From: a virus
DNA: 64,000 nucleotides
IMG/VR virus record: IMGVR_UViG_3300032897_000002
Coordinates: 17,533-81,532 of that record
Reading direction: 5' to 3' (one strand)
The position numbers and the translations under genes were made by a program. Numbering within the stretch: the stretch's first letter is position 1; each line of letters opens with the position of its first letter. The notes beneath the pieces are model-generated. The model ran no database searches. It was not told the DNA's origin and saw only the letters and a list, made by a program, of their open reading frames with translations. This document shows, piece by piece, positions 2,943 through 11,100 of the stretch.

Positions 2943-3248
2943 TTATGCGACTCCCTTGAGCTTGTCTTCGATCTCCGCCTTCTGCTTGCGCAGAGCTTCG
3001 CGCCGCTCTTCAGGAGTGGCAAGCTGCGTCAACCGGGCGTTGATCTTCCGCAGTTCGGCTTCGAGCGCGTCGGCGTTGCGGACCGTGATCTCCCGGCGCA
3101 GGGCCTTCAACTGAATGTCAACAAATTCGGGCTCGGGGATGTTCAGCGCTTCGTATTCGGAACGAATCGAGCGTCCGAAGGCCGACAACTCCACAAGCTC
3201 GTCCAGCGTCAGCCGGTCTTTGTCAAACGACTGATATCTCTCCAGCAT
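2943..3248 (-). CDS. Coiled-coil protein of the Ro60 operon
   Basis: 101 residues from ATG 3248, after a strong AGGAGG ribosome site that sits inside the 3' end of the Ro60 gene; the two genes overlap by 26 bp, so translation is likely coupled. Residues 50-98 are charged and heptad-like, suggesting a coiled coil. No enzymatic motif is visible. Its tight coupling suggests a partner or accessory of Ro60; this is inference. Confidence 0.75.
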   Translation of the reverse strand: MLERYQSFDKDRLTLDELVELSAFGRSIRSEYEALNIPEPEFVDIQLKALRREITVRNADALEAELRKINARLTQLATPEERREALRKQKAEIEDKLKGVA

Positions 3249-4821
3249 AGACTGCCTCCTTTCTCTCAGATTTGAAAACTTCTTTCAGTGTCACAAGCGG
3301 CACCGCCATGATCTCGTCCAGAATTGAATAGCGATTAACCCGCATGGTCTGGACCAGATTCGGCAGTGCATAGTGGTCGATGCTGTCCCCCAGCACGAAT
3401 TCCTGCAAGTCCAGTTCCGCCAGCTTCATGCTGTCCTGCAAGTCCATGTCGCCCGAGAACCGGAACGACGTGGCATTGAGCATCCGAAGTCGCGGAATGA
3501 GATGGCTTCGATATTCCGGCCCGCAGCGGTAGAGGTACACCGGAGGCTGCTTCCCGACAAACTCCGCATAGCGTGCATAGACCGCCGTAAATGCCGGGTT
3601 CTGGTTCTCCTTCGCATCCGATACTACCGCGATGCCATCCACCTCCAGCTTCGCATCAAGCAGATATTGCAGTGCCACCCCAATTGAGGTGCCCCCATCA
3701 GCGCGAACCTTGCTGGTTTCCTTGAGCAGTTCATCGTAGGTCTTTCCGGTTGCGTTGATGAAGCGCGGAGAGGTGTCGAAGAACACCAAATAGACGTTCC
3801 CCTTCACCATTCTGGCCAACGTCGCCGCAACTTGGCGGGAGGCTTCGATGGTGCTGCTCATGCTCCCGCTTTTGTCGCCCAACACGGCCCAGTTGCCTTC
3901 GACCCCTCCGAGCGTCTTGATCTGCTTCTCCTGAAGGGCTTGCAACTTCGCCTTGAGGCCCTCATCCTCGACCGCATCGGCCGCCACGGTGGTTTTGAAG
4001 GTGGCCTTCTTGCTGGTTCCCGCCTTCGCGATTGCGGCTTCGTAGGCGCCACGCAACGCCGGATTCGTCTTGATGCCGAGTTTTTCCAGCATCTTCGTAT
4101 TCGTGACCAACTCAGTCGGTGTCATGCCGTTGATGAGCGCCAAAACAAGGTCCGTTTCCTTGGCCATCTTCCCGAGCGCTCCGACGGCCACCAGAAAAGG
4201 AATTTTGCGGCCGATGATCTCCCCGGCTGCCTCTATCGGGGTCATGTCCTTCAAGTGCGTGATGATGTCGAAGATACTGCCCTTCGGGACCGGCATCTTG
4301 TCGGGGTGCTTCTTCGACGTTCCGAACAAGATCGCATCTGCCAGCGGGCACGGCTTTACATGCGCGAGAGCGTAGAGTGCCTTGAGGGTCTGCCGGTGCT
4401 GAACCGCAGCCCGCTCCCAGCGGTGCCAGTTGGCTTCCCGGTTGTGCAGGTAATCACCGATGAGCCCTTGCAGACTGCGAATCGTCTTGCTGCGCCCCGG
4501 CCACGGATGAGTTTTGCGAAGCTCCAGGGCAAACCGGAAAGCCCGCTCCAGTTCACGCGGTCCTTGTAGCGCCACATGCGCGAGCGAGTTCTCGATGAAA
4601 TCGCTGTCGGTAAATTCGGGCGAGCAGAGCGAGATGACCGGCAGCGCCACCTTGGAGTCACGGATTTGGCCTTTCAGTTGATTCCACGCAATGAGGTGGC
4701 TCAAAAATTCAGGCTCCCGCCGGGCGGCCTCCTGGGTCACCGGAATGTACTCTTCCAACTTGCCGTGAGGAGACTTGCTCAGGTCACTCAAAATTTGATT
4801 CTTGGTGATGCCGGTTTCCAT
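3223..4821 (-). CDS. rsr: Ro60/Rsr-like TROVE-domain RNA-binding protein
   Basis: 532 residues, the usual size of Ro60 orthologs. Residues 1-310 are the helical TROVE repeat ring (for example HLIAWNQLKGQIRDSKVALP near residues 42-61). Residues 311-485 form a von Willebrand A domain with a complete metal site: D316, S318 and S320 in DKSGSMS, T378 in GGTSIG and D402 in VSDAKE. Ro60 proteins bind misfolded RNA in the central hole and Y RNAs on the outside; in bacteria a Y RNA can tether Ro to a nuclease such as PNPase. Four Y-RNA-like elements lie directly upstream, the last ending 17 nt before the ATG (ribosome site AGAGGTAATCC). The gene lies between scaffold and capsid genes, a moron-like position. 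Confidence 0.93.
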   Translation of the reverse strand: METGITKNQILSDLSKSPHGKLEEYIPVTQEAARREPEFLSHLIAWNQLKGQIRDSKVALPVISLCSPEFTDSDFIENSLAHVALQGPRELERAFRFALELRKTHPWPGRSKTIRSLQGLIGDYLHNREANWHRWERAAVQHRQTLKALYALAHVKPCPLADAILFGTSKKHPDKMPVPKGSIFDIITHLKDMTPIEAAGEIIGRKIPFLVAVGALGKMAKETDLVLALINGMTPTELVTNTKMLEKLGIKTNPALRGAYEAAIAKAGTSKKATFKTTVAADAVEDEGLKAKLQALQEKQIKTLGGVEGNWAVLGDKSGSMSSTIEASRQVAATLARMVKGNVYLVFFDTSPRFINATGKTYDELLKETSKVRADGGTSIGVALQYLLDAKLEVDGIAVVSDAKENQNPAFTAVYARYAEFVGKQPPVYLYRCGPEYRSHLIPRLRMLNATSFRFSGDMDLQDSMKLAELDLQEFVLGDSIDHYALPNLVQTMRVNRYSILDEIMAVPLVTLKEVFKSERKEAVYAGEISVV

Positions 4822-4838
4822 GGATTACCTCTTTCTAA

Positions 4839-4956
4839 TTGCGGAAAGTTAGGCAGTGTCTACCCTCACCAATGGGTGGCACCAGGCAAGCCCGATGGCG
4901 GGATTCGAACCAGCATTGCACCTTGCAAGCGCATGTAAACTGCCAGGTATCCGCAA
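4839..4956 (-). ncRNA. Y-RNA-like RNA Y4, in the 5' leader of the Ro60 gene
   Basis: The ends pair perfectly: UUGCGGA (4956-4950) with UCCGCAA (4845-4839). After an internal loop (UACCU opposite UAACUU) a second helix GGCAGU (4944-4939) pairs with ACUGCC (4857-4852), followed by UUACAUG as in the other three copies. The inner domain has a T-arm with loop UUCGAAU (4909-4903; stem with one U.C mismatch) and, 3' of it, a D-arm-like hairpin ACCC-AUUGGUGA-GGGU (4877-4862). T before D is the permuted order seen in Y2. A cysteine tRNA reading can be forced from the CTTGCAAG segment, but there is no matching acceptor stem. Confidence 0.75.
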
Positions 4957-4962
4957 ATCTTA

Positions 4963-5078
4963 TGGCCTCAAGTCGAAGGTGGTATCTTTGCTAAGGCTCA
5001 AAAGCCTCCCCCCCGCAAGGATGGTGGAGGGGGGCCGGTACGACCGGCATGGCATGTAACCCTCTTCAGTAGAGGCCA
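4963..5078 (-). ncRNA. Y-RNA-like RNA Y3
   Basis: Terminal helix UGGCCUC (5078-5072) with GAGGCCA (4969-4963). The inner face is UACUGAAGAGGGUUACAUG on the 5' strand and ACCACCUUCGACUU on the 3' strand, giving GAAG/CUUC and GGU/ACC pairs around an internal loop. The UACUGA...UUACAUG and CGACUU sequences are shared with Y2. The inner domain has a T-arm-like GCCGG/CCGGC hairpin with a shortened loop, a C-run/G-run acceptor-like hairpin containing UCCACCA, and a GGCU-GAGCC hairpin in the D-arm place. It starts 3 nt after the HNH stop codon. Confidence 0.72.
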
Positions 5079-5081
5079 ATC

Positions 5082-5612
5082 TCACAAACTTCTTAGTTCC
5101 AAATACCGCTTGGTTGCGTTGAAATCGTAGCCCCGGCGTGCGCACCATGTCTCGGGGTCTTCCGAGCCTTTGTCTTTATTGCACGGCTTGCAGGCTGTAA
5201 GATAATTACTCGCGTTATTTTTTCCGCCCAGTTCCAACGGAACAAAATGGTCGATGGTCATGAGAGATTTTCCCATCTTCGCGCCGCAGTATGCGCACTT
5301 GAAGCCGTCAGCCGCCCAGATTCGCTGTTGCACGGAACCGGAAATCTCATAGCGCACCTTGCGCTGGAAAATCTTCGCTGGGCCGATCAGAATCTCTGGA
5401 TTATCGCTCCGCTGGATGAAGTCAGACCATTCTTCCACCGTCAACTCATACTCGCTTGTTTTGCGGCATTCGAATCCCGGCAACATGAGGATGGCCTTTG
5501 CTCCTCCGCCTCCAACCACAAGGCCCTCAATCTTCAGGAGTGATCCGATATCGCCGTACTTCACGGGCCGATTGCGAAATTCCAAGAGATAAAATCTGTC
5601 GTCGCTCGCCAT
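5082..5612 (-). CDS. HNH endonuclease nested between Y RNAs
   Basis: 176 residues from ATG 5612 (TTAGGATTGACC ribosome site, placed right after Y2). The C-terminal half is a full HNH/beta-beta-alpha-metal nuclease: CAYC at 106-109, D121-H122 in MTIDHFVPLELGG, N134 or N137, and CKPC at 141-144. Residues 1-95 are a separate domain I do not recognise. The gene fits exactly between Y2 (ends 5625) and Y3 (begins 5078), all on one strand behind one promoter. It may be a mobile nuclease using the locus as a niche, or an effector of the Ro/Y-RNA complex; the sequence does not decide this. Confidence 0.85.
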   Translation of the reverse strand: MASDDRFYLLEFRNRPVKYGDIGSLLKIEGLVVGGGGAKAILMLPGFECRKTSEYELTVEEWSDFIQRSDNPEILIGPAKIFQRKVRYEISGSVQQRIWAADGFKCAYCGAKMGKSLMTIDHFVPLELGGKNNASNYLTACKPCNKDKGSEDPETWCARRGYDFNATKRYLELRSL

Positions 5613-5624
5613 GGTCAATCCTAA

Positions 5625-5758
5625 TTGGGTGCAAGTCGCTGCGGGTTCATTAAGCGCTCTACCACTGAGCTAATCCCCCGTATGGCTGGGGGATGTTGGA
5701 TTCGAACCAACGACCTCTTCCTTAGAAGGAAGCATGTAACCGCCTCAGTAGCACCCAA
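5625..5758 (-). ncRNA. Y-RNA-like RNA Y2 with a circularly permuted tRNA-like domain
   Basis: Terminal helix UUGGGUGC (5758-5751) with GCACCCAA (5632-5625), 8 bp. Above an internal loop (UACUGAG opposite AGCGACUU), GCGGUU pairs with AACCCGC with one bulge. The inner domain contains, in order, a UUCC/GGAA hairpin, a perfect T-arm GUUGG-UUCGAAU-CCAAC (5711-5695), a perfect 7-bp acceptor helix AUCCCCC/GGGGGAU (5694-5673) closed by AGCCAUAC, then UA and a classic D-arm GCUC-AGUGGUA-GAGC (5670-5656). Cutting in the acceptor loop and rejoining gives an ordinary tRNA outline, so the Ro-type stem replaces the anticodon stem. A tRNA finder may report parts as a tRNA. Confidence 0.82.
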
Positions 5759-5764
5759 ACTTTA

Positions 5765-5874
5765 TCCCGGTAAGTCGGCCAGCTTTTACTTCATGGTTGG
5801 AATTGAACCAACTCCCACTGAGCCAAGTCAGTTGCTCACCAAAGAGCTTCATGTACGCTGTCCCATAACCGGGA
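5765..5874 (-). ncRNA. Y-RNA-like RNA Y1
   Basis: First RNA of the operon, starting about 12 nt after the predicted transcription start. Terminal helix UCCCGGU (5874-5868) with ACCGGGA (5771-5765); second helix CAGC/GCUG with flanking GG/CC; UACAUG on the 5' strand and CGACUU on the 3' strand match the other copies. Inner domain: a GCUC-UUUGGU-GAGC D-arm-like hairpin, an ACUGA/UCAGU hairpin, a perfect T-arm GUUGG-UUCAAUU-CCAAC (5812-5796), and CAUG/CAUG closing the domain. Here D precedes T, unlike Y2 and Y4, so Y1 may have a different fold or partner. Confidence 0.75.
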
Positions 5875-8158: not shown

Positions 8159-11100
8159 TCAAACTTGTGGTCCTGGTGCAACAATCGGCATCGGAACGGC
8201 GGGTCCGGTCGGATGCTTCGATTTCTCAAGCTCGGCCTGAAATTCGCGGGTCGTTGAAACGTCCGAACCCGTCACCGTGGTATCTCCCCGGCGCTGCAAC
8301 TCCTTCGCCACCGATTCGGCCGGCAGGTCGCTCAGCTTGCCACTGATGTTCATGGGCTTTACAACGGGCTCGGGCGGAGGCACCTTTGCTTTATGCTCAG
8401 AAAAGTGCAGATTAAGGTTGAGGAAAGCTGCCTGTTCCTCGGGACTCCCGTTGGCGAGTTTGCGTCCACGCGGGTCGTTGATCACATCGAGACACGCTTC
8501 CGCCTCCGACGCATGATCGTCTGTGTCGCGCACTGGGACCGTGGAAACAAGGTCTGGCAGCGCGTTGATGGCCGCTTCCATCTGCATAAGGGCCTGTGTC
8601 TCCTCGGGGGTTATCACGACGCCCTGCAACATCTTCGCGGCTGCCTGCGCCTTGGCCTGCTCGAAGGCCATCTGGGCCTGCTGCTTGGCGGGATTGGGAA
8701 CGGGGCCGCTGGCTAGCAGTACATCCAACTCGCCCATTTGTTTGTCGTAGGCGTCGGCCTCGGAGCACTTGAAGTGTCCGATGCGGAACGACTCCATCGC
8801 GGCCCGGATATTGGCGACCTTGCTGAGCAGTTTCATGACGAGCGGGTTGGTGACCTGCATCAGCACGCGGTTCCATGCGGCCTGACGCTGCGCGGGACTC
8901 TCGGAGTACCCGGCATCATCCTGCGGGAAGCACAGCACATTACCCTTGAGGTCGTCAATTTCGATATCGACCGCCTCGCCATTCTTGTCGGTTTGGTGGA
9001 TGGAGGCATTCCGGCAGCGGGCCGCGAGTTGCACGGCCTGGCGATGGTAATTGCAGGTGGCCATCTTCATGGCGTGCCACGGCGTTCCCTGGGTCGCGAG
9101 GGCCTGATCGCGCTGGATTTCGAGAGCGACACCGGATGGATTCGCAACGTCTGTATTGGCCGTGGACCCGAAGAGAGTCGGTAAGGCGTGCACAATCAAC
9201 TGCGGCAACTGCTCGATGAAGTACATGATTAACTGGATCATGAACGGCTGGCCGGTGGGGGTCGGAAACACAAACATGGAGTCGGCTATGGGCTTTCCCG
9301 CCGCTGCGCCTTGAAGCTGCCGCGAGTCCACTGGGATGAACGCCCCCGGATTCGAGCCGGTCTTGTTGAGCGCGTCCACGTCGAACAGCACCGTGTCCAC
9401 TGCGGTGTGCGGGACGCACTTGGTCATGTAGGCATCGGCCAAATCGAGCCAGTTGTTGAGGCGCCGCTGGATGGACGTGAGGCTGGACATGAGGGACTTG
9501 CGGTTCTGGCCTGTACCCGGAAGGGCCTGGATGAGCGTGAGGTGATCATCCATGCACTCATTGCGGGCCTCGATGAACGTGTCCCCGGCCATATAGCACT
9601 TCACGCCGTCGGGGAACGCATCGAACAGTTCACGCCGCACATCGAGGTCTTCCACTTCCATAAACATCGCGGGCCGCATCCAGATGCGATGCAGCGTGAC
9701 ATCCTTTACGAGCGAGTCCCCGGTGACGTAGCTCGCTTCGAGCGACAACGACACGTTGATGCGGGCAATGCGGTCCAGTTCGATTTCGGCCACGCCGGAA
9801 CCACCCGGCTTGATCTTGTCGGCTTTCTTGGGGAACATGGCCTTCAGCCGCGCCACATCGAACTCGCGGGAGACCTTCACGAAATCCATTTCGTCAAGCG
9901 ATTGCGCGACGATGGGGACCTTCGCCTCTAACTTGCCGCAGACCTCCACGACTTCCTGCCCACGCGGGATGCCACGCTTGATGCCGGCCGGTTGAGTGCC
10001 GGTGGATTTGGGGAAGATGGGCCGCATGTCGTAGTTGGCGTCCTCTTTCTGCTCCACCACCGCTACGCCACCCGGAGGCACGTTGGTAATGCCGTAGGGA
10101 ATCTCAGGGTTCAGAAATTGGCCCACAGAACTAATAACCGAATCATGACAGACGATGGCAAACGGTAGCCCCGGAGTTCGCAGCAGGTCCAGAATTGCAG
10201 AAGCAACGCGCTGATTGAACTCCTCGACATTCTCTCCGCCGGGAGCTTCCTCTTCGCCGGTAAAGATTTCGCGTATTTCCTCGGCATTTTTTTGCGCATC
10301 CTCTCCCGTAAGCGTTCCCAGGTCGAAGGCGGCTAGACGGTCATCAACATCGTAAGGCACCCCAAGGGCCTGCGAAACGTATTCGGCCGTCTCCACGCTC
10401 CGCTGTACGGGGCTGCACACAATGCGGCTGATGTTCTTGCCCTTCAGGAATGCCGCTACCTTCTCGGCCTCGCGCCGTCCGAGCTTGTTGAGCGGGTCCT
10501 GCGACTCGCCGCGCAGCTTGCCCTCAGCGTTCTTTTCGGTCTCGCCGTGGCGCACGATGTAGAGCAGGGGATTGTTGACGTGCTCTTCGGTTTCGGGCAC
10601 AACGGGCTCGGCAGGCTCGTTGAGGGGCTCCCGCCCAAAGCGCTGCGCGTCGATAACGTGGTCTGTTATCAACACGACCCGGCCATCGGTACAGAGGTAG
10701 TTGGCGATCTGCATGTGGGTGCCCAGCAGGTCGTTCTGGCTCTCGAACACGCGGGCATAATTGGACGCGGCTTCCTTCGCGGTGATGTCGGCATCGTCCT
10801 CGGGGTCACGCGCCTGGAACTGCACGCCGGGAATGTCACGCGATAGCGCTGCCGTGATGATCTGCTCGTAGCAGCCGTAGATGTTGGTCTCGTTGCCCCA
10901 GAACTTCTTGTTGCGGGTTGTGCCGCCGATGGTGCCGCTGAAACCGAGGGCTACCCAGCCGCCACCACGTCTCGGTAAAAGATATTGATAACCACGGGAA
11001 TAGAGTCTTTGGGACCAAGCGTCTTCAAACTTCCCATCTGCGCGCGGCCAAGTCGCGCCTTGCGGTTGCACCGCACAGGTCTACTAACGTGTTTTCTGCC

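What the first reader, a model, noticed from the sequence alone, without database searches (positions are those of the whole stretch)
5625..5758. Y2 contains a complete circularly permuted tRNA outline
Perfect T-arm, 7-bp acceptor helix and D-arm occur in the order T, acceptor, D. The acceptor ends are joined by AGCCAUAC and the open end is where the anticodon stem would be, fused to the Ro-type stem. YrlA tRNA mimicry is established; an intact 7-bp acceptor helix in such a permuted context may be uncommon and could recruit tRNA enzymes (RNase P, CCA-adding or T-loop modification enzymes).
Basis: partly seen in the sequence, partly recalled or inferred. Interest (0 to 1): 0.85.

Follow-up and report, generated by a model that had tools for sequence, protein, structure and literature searches.

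The report
Phage Y RNA carrying rearranged tRNA
A bacteriophage encodes a small RNA in which a whole transfer RNA has been re-cut and grafted onto a stem that probably binds the phage's own Ro60-like protein; it belongs to a family in phages and bacteria that has re-cut tRNAs at several different places, probably to imitate tRNA without being usable for translation.

Summary
On the minus strand (5758..5625) lie a T-arm, a perfect 7-bp acceptor helix closed by AGCCAUAC, and a D-arm, in that order, on a two-helix Ro-type stem. This order is the defining layout of the known YrlA RNAs (Rfam RF02553, sub-threshold here: 35 bits against a cut-off of 69).

The claim that an intact 7-bp acceptor is uncommon is wrong. 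In 32 permuted RNAs (Y2 included), 221 of 224 acceptor pairs form (shuffled partners: mean 119, maximum 148), and 29 of 32 keep 7/7.

A hairpin (CUUCC-UUCUAA-GGAAG), one variable-loop length upstream of the T-arm, resembles an Arg(UCU)-type anticodon arm. The tRNA is therefore opened near position 26, not inside the anticodon stem.

Y2 is one of four Ro-stem RNAs upstream of a divergent Ro60 gene (profile and predicted fold). Relatives in phages, cyanobacteria and Chloroflexi graft the stem at other points: acceptor ends, position 8, D-loop, position 26, anticodon stem, variable loop. Some insert a capped Ro stem into tRNAs that keep normal ends.

Verdict: a new variant of a known kind. Best guess at function: a Ro-tethered tRNA mimic that cannot be charged. 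Function was not tested.

The parts
5625..5758 (-). Y2: whole Ro-stem RNA with permuted tRNA module
   Evidence: Two-stem Ro signature score 36; Rfam YrlA 35 bits at 5719-5648
5751..5758 (-). Ro lower stem, 5' strand UUGGGUGC
   Evidence: pairs with 5632-5625
5740..5743 (-). Ro upper stem, 5' strand GCGG
   Evidence: pairs with CCGC 5644-5641
5733..5739 (-). conserved UUACAUG motif that ends the Ro 5' strand
   Evidence: UACAUG/UACACG/UACAAAC in relatives, CUACAU in cellular YrlA
5717..5732 (-). anticodon-arm-like hairpin CUUCC-UUCUAA-GGAAG (Arg UCU-like, 6-nt loop)
   Evidence: such an arm occurs in 9 of 22 permuted RNAs against 0.24 expected
5712..5716 (-). variable-loop-like AGGUC
   Evidence: sequence; spacing as in tRNA
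5695..5711 (-). T-arm GUUGG-UUCGAAU-CCAAC
5688..5694 (-). acceptor helix, 3' strand AUCCCCC
5680..5687 (-). acceptor loop AGCCAUAC (resembles discriminator base plus CCA end)
   Evidence: same AGCCA follows the acceptor of L011 3542-3660
5673..5679 (-). acceptor helix, 5' strand GGGGGAU
5656..5670 (-). D-arm GCUC-AGUGGUA-GAGC
5641..5644 (-). Ro upper stem, 3' strand CCGC
5625..5640 (-). Ro 3' loop AGCGACUU and lower stem GCACCCAA
   Evidence: GACUU conserved in relatives
5765..5874 (-). Ya: Ro-stem RNA with a canonical-order tRNA-like module (Rfam tRNA 34 bits at 5788-5856)
4963..5078 (-). Yb: Ro-stem RNA without clear tRNA; G/C hairpin with CCUCC-ACCA
4835..4957 (-). Yc: Ro-stem RNA, YrlA order (T-acceptor-D), 18.8 bits to YrlA
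   Evidence: inspection
3223..4821 (-). Ro60-like protein (TROVE + vWA with invariant D315/S317/S319/T377/D401)
   Evidence: profile to PDB TROVE 1.4e-6; AF2 model best matches 13 Ro60/Rsr/TROVE chains

Best explanation
Y2 is a phage-encoded, Ro-binding Y RNA. Its effector module is a whole tRNA (anticodon-like arm, variable loop, T-arm, closed 7-bp acceptor, D-arm) whose backbone is opened near position 26 and re-closed at the acceptor. The base-paired stem at the opening is bound by the phage's own Ro60-like ring protein, encoded just downstream on the same strand. Because the acceptor is a closed hairpin and the real ends lie in the Ro stem, the RNA can show the tRNA core to tRNA-recognising proteins but cannot be charged or used in translation. 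Most likely it ties a tRNA-recognising host factor to Ro, or competes with tRNA for an enzyme (a modification enzyme, a nuclease, or a repair/decay enzyme) during infection. Shown here: sequence, structure by covariation, linkage to Ro, and homologues. Inferred: binding to Ro, the tRNA-like 3D shape, modification, and the tether/decoy role. The layout most simply arose from a tandem tRNA duplication that lost its outer parts.
For: Ro identity: profile A2 hits PDB TROVE proteins at 1.4e-6; the AF2 model's 13 best PDB matches are all Ro60/Rsr/TROVE, including phage phiLo Ro60; MIDAS residues are invariant. Ro stem: 83 hits in 625 kb against 17.7 in shuffles, the high scorers sit upstream of Ro genes. 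Acceptor covariation 221/224; no tandem tRNA pair reaches 7/7. Anticodon arm in 9/22 permuted RNAs against 0.24 by shuffling, 0 of 2000; loops follow tRNA rules: U33 was required by the search, but positions not required also fit, with pyrimidine at 32 in 35/36 and purine at 37 in 35/36. Closest twin, L015 2900-3035, folds unconstrained into the whole architecture, z = -6.5. Origin: CCA exactly at positions 74-76 in 4 acceptor loops against 0.5 expected. Same order beside Ro/TROVE genes of named phages CcrColossus, BRock, Atuin.
Against: The anticodon hairpin of Y2 has a 6-nt loop, and part of its 3' strand could also pair with GCUU after the D-arm. The full-length minimum-energy fold opens the T-arm, by 1 kcal/mol. 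No expression data exist; the host is unknown and the contig is a metagenomic fragment. The modules in relatives carry 23 different anticodons in 36 loops, which argues against a decoy for one anticodon-specific nuclease. No direct evidence that this Ro binds these RNAs.
Confidence: 0.66

Rival explanations
1. Plain YrlA: only T, acceptor and D arms matter, as in Salmonella YrlA. The extra hairpin is an unrelated spacer or a remnant without function.
For: Rfam YrlA matches the T-acceptor-D part. Several relatives lack an anticodon arm. The Y2 hairpin has a 6-nt loop.
Against: Anticodon arms with tRNA-like loops, at variable-loop distance from the T-arm, occur in 9/22 permuted RNAs against 0.24 expected. 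Relatives opened at other points keep complete anticodon arms.
Confidence: 0.25
2. Anti-defence decoy: the module occupies host tRNA-cleaving defence enzymes, with Ro stabilising it. (A narrower form of the best explanation, so the two are not exclusive.)
For: A competitive-inhibitor role for YrlA against an anticodon nuclease was proposed by others (PMC7790460). Phage tRNAs are known to counter PARIS (PMC11455837). Phage arrays present many anticodon loops.
Against: The same arrays sit in cyanobacterial and Chloroflexi loci. YrlA-order members lack the anticodon loop. Anticodons are diverse.
Confidence: 0.3
3. Precursor of a functional tRNA: RNase P and other enzymes would cut at AGCCAUAC and rejoin the ends, as with permuted tRNA genes of algae.
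For: Intact acceptor, CCA-like AGCCA, near-complete cloverleaf. Relatives L011 and L013 carry the Ro stem at the same place but with ordinary acceptor ends.
Against: The Ro stem would have to be removed at position 26. Many relatives have tetraloop-closed acceptors or no CCA. The Y2 anticodon loop has 6 nt. Bacteria lack the splicing endonuclease (general knowledge).
Confidence: 0.06
4. Chance or debris: two adjacent tRNA gene remnants that happen to pair.
For: BLAST of Y2 also hits real tandem tRNA genes in phages, and the YrlA model rings on ordinary genomes.
Against: None of 73 adjacent tRNA pairs reaches 7/7. There is a shared Ro stem in four RNAs, linkage to Ro, and covariation.
Confidence: 0.02

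Closest known systems
YrlA RNAs (Rfam RF02553; Salmonella YrlA, PDB 6CU1)
   Same: Ro-type stem; T-acceptor-D order; closed acceptor; next to a Ro60/Rsr gene
   Different: Scores 35 bits against a 69-bit cut-off; keeps an anticodon-arm-like hairpin, so it is opened near position 26; the Ro stem carries UACUG/GACUU motifs; one of four differently built sisters
Deinococcus Y RNA / RYPER (Rsr-Y RNA-PNPase)
   Same: A Y RNA joins Ro to an effector
   Different: The effector here is unknown; the module is a tRNA mimic
Phage Ro60/TROVE proteins (jumbo phages; Thermus phage phiLo 9l5y; CcrColossus, BRock, Atuin)
   Same: Phage-encoded Ro next to tRNA-like RNAs and tRNAs
   Different: Only about 15% identity to solved Ro; no Pfam TROVE hit above cut-off
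Circularly permuted tRNA genes (algae, archaea)
   Same: Acceptor halves joined by a short linker, halves in swapped order
   Different: No sign of processing to an aminoacylatable tRNA; a Ro stem is fused at the opening

Membership tests
YrlA (RF02553) | score above the curated gathering threshold | tested here: not met
   35 bits against 69
YrlA (RF02553) | T-arm, closed acceptor, D-arm in this order | tested here: met
YrlA (RF02553) | Ro-binding stem with internal loop and conserved strands | tested here: met
   cellular YrlAs show the related CUACAU ... ACUUG
YrlA (RF02553) | no anticodon arm; opening within the anticodon stem | tested here: not met
   anticodon-like hairpin 5' of the T-arm
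YrlA (RF02553) | encoded next to a Ro60 orthologue | tested here: met
   ORF 3223-4821
YrlA (RF02553) | modified by DusA and TruB | not testable with these tools
   known for Salmonella YrlA (PMC8394870); UUCGAAU T-loop and GG-containing D-loop present
Ro60/TROVE protein | helical TROVE ring plus vWA domain | tested here: met
   AF2 pLDDT 79.6; 13 best PDB matches are Ro60/Rsr/TROVE, TM 0.54-0.60 by query length
Ro60/TROVE protein | Pfam TROVE/vWA_Ro60 above curated cut-off | tested here: not met
   vWA_Ro60 12.3 bits against 27.7; no TROVE hit
Permuted tRNA gene | processed to a mature tRNA | not testable with these tools
   no RNA data
Tandem tRNA genes | acceptor halves belong to two different tRNAs and need not pair | tested here: not met
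   7/7 here; 0 of 73 controls

The most novel reading that the evidence does not exclude
Ro60 systems of phages and bacteria treat the tRNA as a ring-shaped module. The same Ro stem is grafted at about six backbone points (acceptor ends, position 8, D-loop, position 26, anticodon stem, variable loop). The RNA ends lie either at the Ro stem or at the acceptor, the latter by inserting a tetraloop-capped Ro stem into an otherwise ordinary tRNA. This would be a natural library of most circular permutations of one RNA fold, held together by Ro and kept as non-translating tRNA mimics.
Probability: 0.55. Interest if true: 0.82.

Novelty: new variant of a known kind. Interest (0 to 1): 0.62.

Why it matters
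YrlA is known as one fixed permutation of a tRNA with an unknown partner. These arrays show that the tRNA object is kept while the cut point moves, and that the anticodon arm is often retained. That points to recognition of the whole tRNA shape, and it gives natural variants for finding the partner (nuclease, modification enzyme, PNPase or repair enzyme). Named phages (CcrColossus, BRock, Atuin) carry such RNAs unannotated next to Ro genes, so the question can be tested in the laboratory.

Tried and rejected
Tandem tRNA genes as explanation: rejected. Direct Ro protein search in viral contigs: nothing with single sequences; alignments worked. DNA pattern of the L002-type Ro strand in viral contigs: no hits. 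Single sequence against PDB sequences: no hit; the profile worked. TACATG or CGACTT alone are not enriched in the window. The consensus promoter scan found no site 5' of Ya; by eye there is TTGACA-17-TAGGCT before Ya (minus strand, about 5920-5892), not scored. Automated arm calling misread a few RNAs (for example L015_2900's anticodon arm called as a D-arm, and the line between nested and position-8 classes), so class counts are approximate. Key papers (Chen 2014, Wang 2018, Sim and Wolin 2018, Sim 2020) were not available (those looked up were not held), so I cannot exclude that some of these forms are already described there.

Full report
What is there. The finding lies on the minus strand, 5758..5625. 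Reading 5'->3': an 8-bp lower stem, the loop UACUGAG, a 4-bp upper stem, UUACAUG, then the hairpin CUUCC-UUCUAA-GGAAG, AGGUC, a T-arm, AUCCCCC-AGCCAUAC-GGGGGAU, UA, a D-arm, a linker, and the 3' strands of the two outer stems with AGCGACUU between them. Free folding of the module alone gives exactly the four arms. The full-length RNA has a competing fold that opens the T-arm, about 1 kcal/mol better than the best fold with the Ro stem enforced; with that stem enforced, the T, acceptor and D arms each form with probability of at least 0.94. Binding by Ro could therefore matter for folding.

Surroundings. The contig is an 81.5-kb IMG/VR virus record with terminase subunits and a DnaB helicase. 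Directly downstream of the RNAs on the same strand is a 532-aa protein. Single-sequence Pfam and PDB searches give only a weak vWA match. A profile of its relatives hits solved TROVE proteins at 1.4e-6. An AlphaFold2 model (pLDDT 79.6) has Ro60, Rsr and TROVE structures as its 13 best matches, including a phage Ro60. It is a divergent Ro60. Three more Ro-stem RNAs lie on the same strand: Ya (5874..5765) with a tRNA-like module in normal order, Yb (5078..4963) with a G/C hairpin, and Yc (4957..4835) in YrlA order. An HNH endonuclease gene sits between Y2 and Yb.

Relatives. Alignment-based searches found 27 viral loci and 30 cellular contigs with related Ro genes. A two-helix finder for the Ro stem gave 83 hits against 17.7 in shuffles; the high-scoring ones lie just upstream of Ro genes. 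A related stem (CUUACAU ... ACUU) occurs next to cellular Ro genes in cyanobacteria, Chloroflexi and others.

Is the acceptor helix unusual? No. In 32 permuted RNAs (Y2 included) 221 of 224 acceptor pairs form, against a mean of 119 and a maximum of 148 when partners are swapped; two to four Watson-Crick pair types occur at every position, and 29 of 32 have 7/7. The RNAs in this set were chosen partly because their acceptor pairs, so the covariation and the 0-of-73 control carry more weight than the raw percentage. Adjacent ordinary tRNA genes give 3.5 of 7 on average and never 7, so the order is not an accident of tandem tRNA genes. Several acceptor loops begin with what looks like a discriminator base plus CCA (4 exact, 0.5 expected). 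The AGCCA of Y2 recurs after the acceptor of L011. This suggests descent from tandem tRNA copies.

Where is the tRNA opened? YrlA is described as D, T and acceptor arms plus a Ro stem (PMC8394870), and its structure is a circular permutation of tRNA (PMC11472068). Y2 has in addition an anticodon-like arm at variable-loop distance 5' of the T-arm. Such arms occur in 9 of 22 permuted RNAs with enough upstream sequence, against 0.24 after shuffling (0 of 2000 reach it). The best twin, L015 2900-3035, folds without constraint into the Ro stem, a 5-bp/7-nt anticodon arm, the T-arm, an extended closed acceptor and the D-arm (z = -6.5). So Y2 is opened near position 26.

A wider pattern. Relatives are opened elsewhere: at the acceptor ends (normal tRNA nested in the Ro stem, e.g. 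L006 4826, L020 4060); at position 8 (D-AC-T-closed acceptor, e.g. L005 5857, L007 4453); in the D-loop (L004 5700); in the anticodon stem (YrlA order, e.g. L012 4718, L066); and in the variable loop (L005 5707, L021 2964, L009 4344, L014 3917). In L002, L028 and L029 a tetraloop-capped (mostly GAAA) Ro stem is inserted in the D-loop region of tRNAs with ordinary ends, and in L011 and L013 between the D and anticodon arms (no such hits in shuffled controls of eight loci). L011 and L013 have the same connectivity as Y2 but are cut at the acceptor instead of at the Ro stem. The sorting is partly by rule and partly by eye, so class counts are approximate.

How it probably works (inference). The Ro stem should be held by the phage Ro60, as known for Y RNAs. 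The tRNA module then projects outward. A closed acceptor cannot be charged or receive CCA, so the RNA is a non-translating mimic. It could tether a tRNA-recognising factor to Ro, or compete with tRNA for an enzyme. A competitive role against an anticodon nuclease was suggested for YrlA (PMC7790460). The diversity of anticodons (23 in 36 loops) and the presence of the arrays in cellular loci argue against one anticodon-specific target.

Comparison and novelty. By its Rfam score Y2 is not a YrlA member (35 against 69 bits), but it shares the YrlA order and the Ro linkage. It is best called a new variant of a known kind. Phage Ro/TROVE proteins are known (PMC7824862, PMC7765460). Similar unannotated RNAs sit next to Ro/TROVE genes in named phages BRock, CcrColossus and Atuin; in CcrColossus the anticodon-like arm is also present (TCGA-CTGTTAA-TCGA). 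The main primary papers on bacterial Y RNAs could not be read here, so priority for the wider pattern is open.

Noticed in passing
L002 1700-5300 (LR756511.1, 595-kb phage): Array of about 14 or more Ro-type strands next to a Ro gene, many fused to tRNAs, several with a GAAA-capped Ro stem inserted in the D-loop region.
   Followed up: partly
L011 3542-3660, L013 3842-3960: tRNAs with ordinary ends (AGCCA or U-CCA) and a capped Ro stem between the D and anticodon arms: the unpermuted counterpart of Y2.
   Followed up: partly
L035-L041, L063, L064 upstream of Ro genes: Cyanobacterial and other cellular Ro loci carry arrays of Ro-stem RNAs with nested normal-order tRNAs and permuted ones with anticodon arms (Glu UUC, Tyr GUA, Arg ACG loops).
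   Followed up: partly
window 4963-5078; L008 4255; L009 4213; L005 5542; L013 4262: A second Ro-stem class without a T-arm, with a long G/C hairpin and often CCUCC-ACCA; possibly an acceptor-only remnant.
   Followed up: no
window 5082-5618 (-); L015 4404-4985: HNH endonuclease gene inside or next to the Y RNA cluster; a gene with a similar start lies just upstream of Ro in L015, perhaps a mobile element.
   Followed up: no
window 8159-11071 (-): 970-aa protein with an intact-looking histidine-phosphatase domain (residues 170-316) inside an otherwise unassigned protein, possibly a portal.
   Followed up: no
L065 (Klebsiella phage KP2025), 1259-2689 and about 2990-3070: DUF2828 gene beside an unannotated YrlA-like RNA, with a tRNA-Arg annotated as 432 nt that overlaps the DUF2828 start.
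   Followed up: no
window 5974-5953 (-) and about 5920-5892 (-): Terminator-like hairpin followed by TTGACA-17-TAGGCT before Ya: a likely start of one transcript carrying Ya, Y2, HNH, Yb, Yc and Ro.
   Followed up: partly
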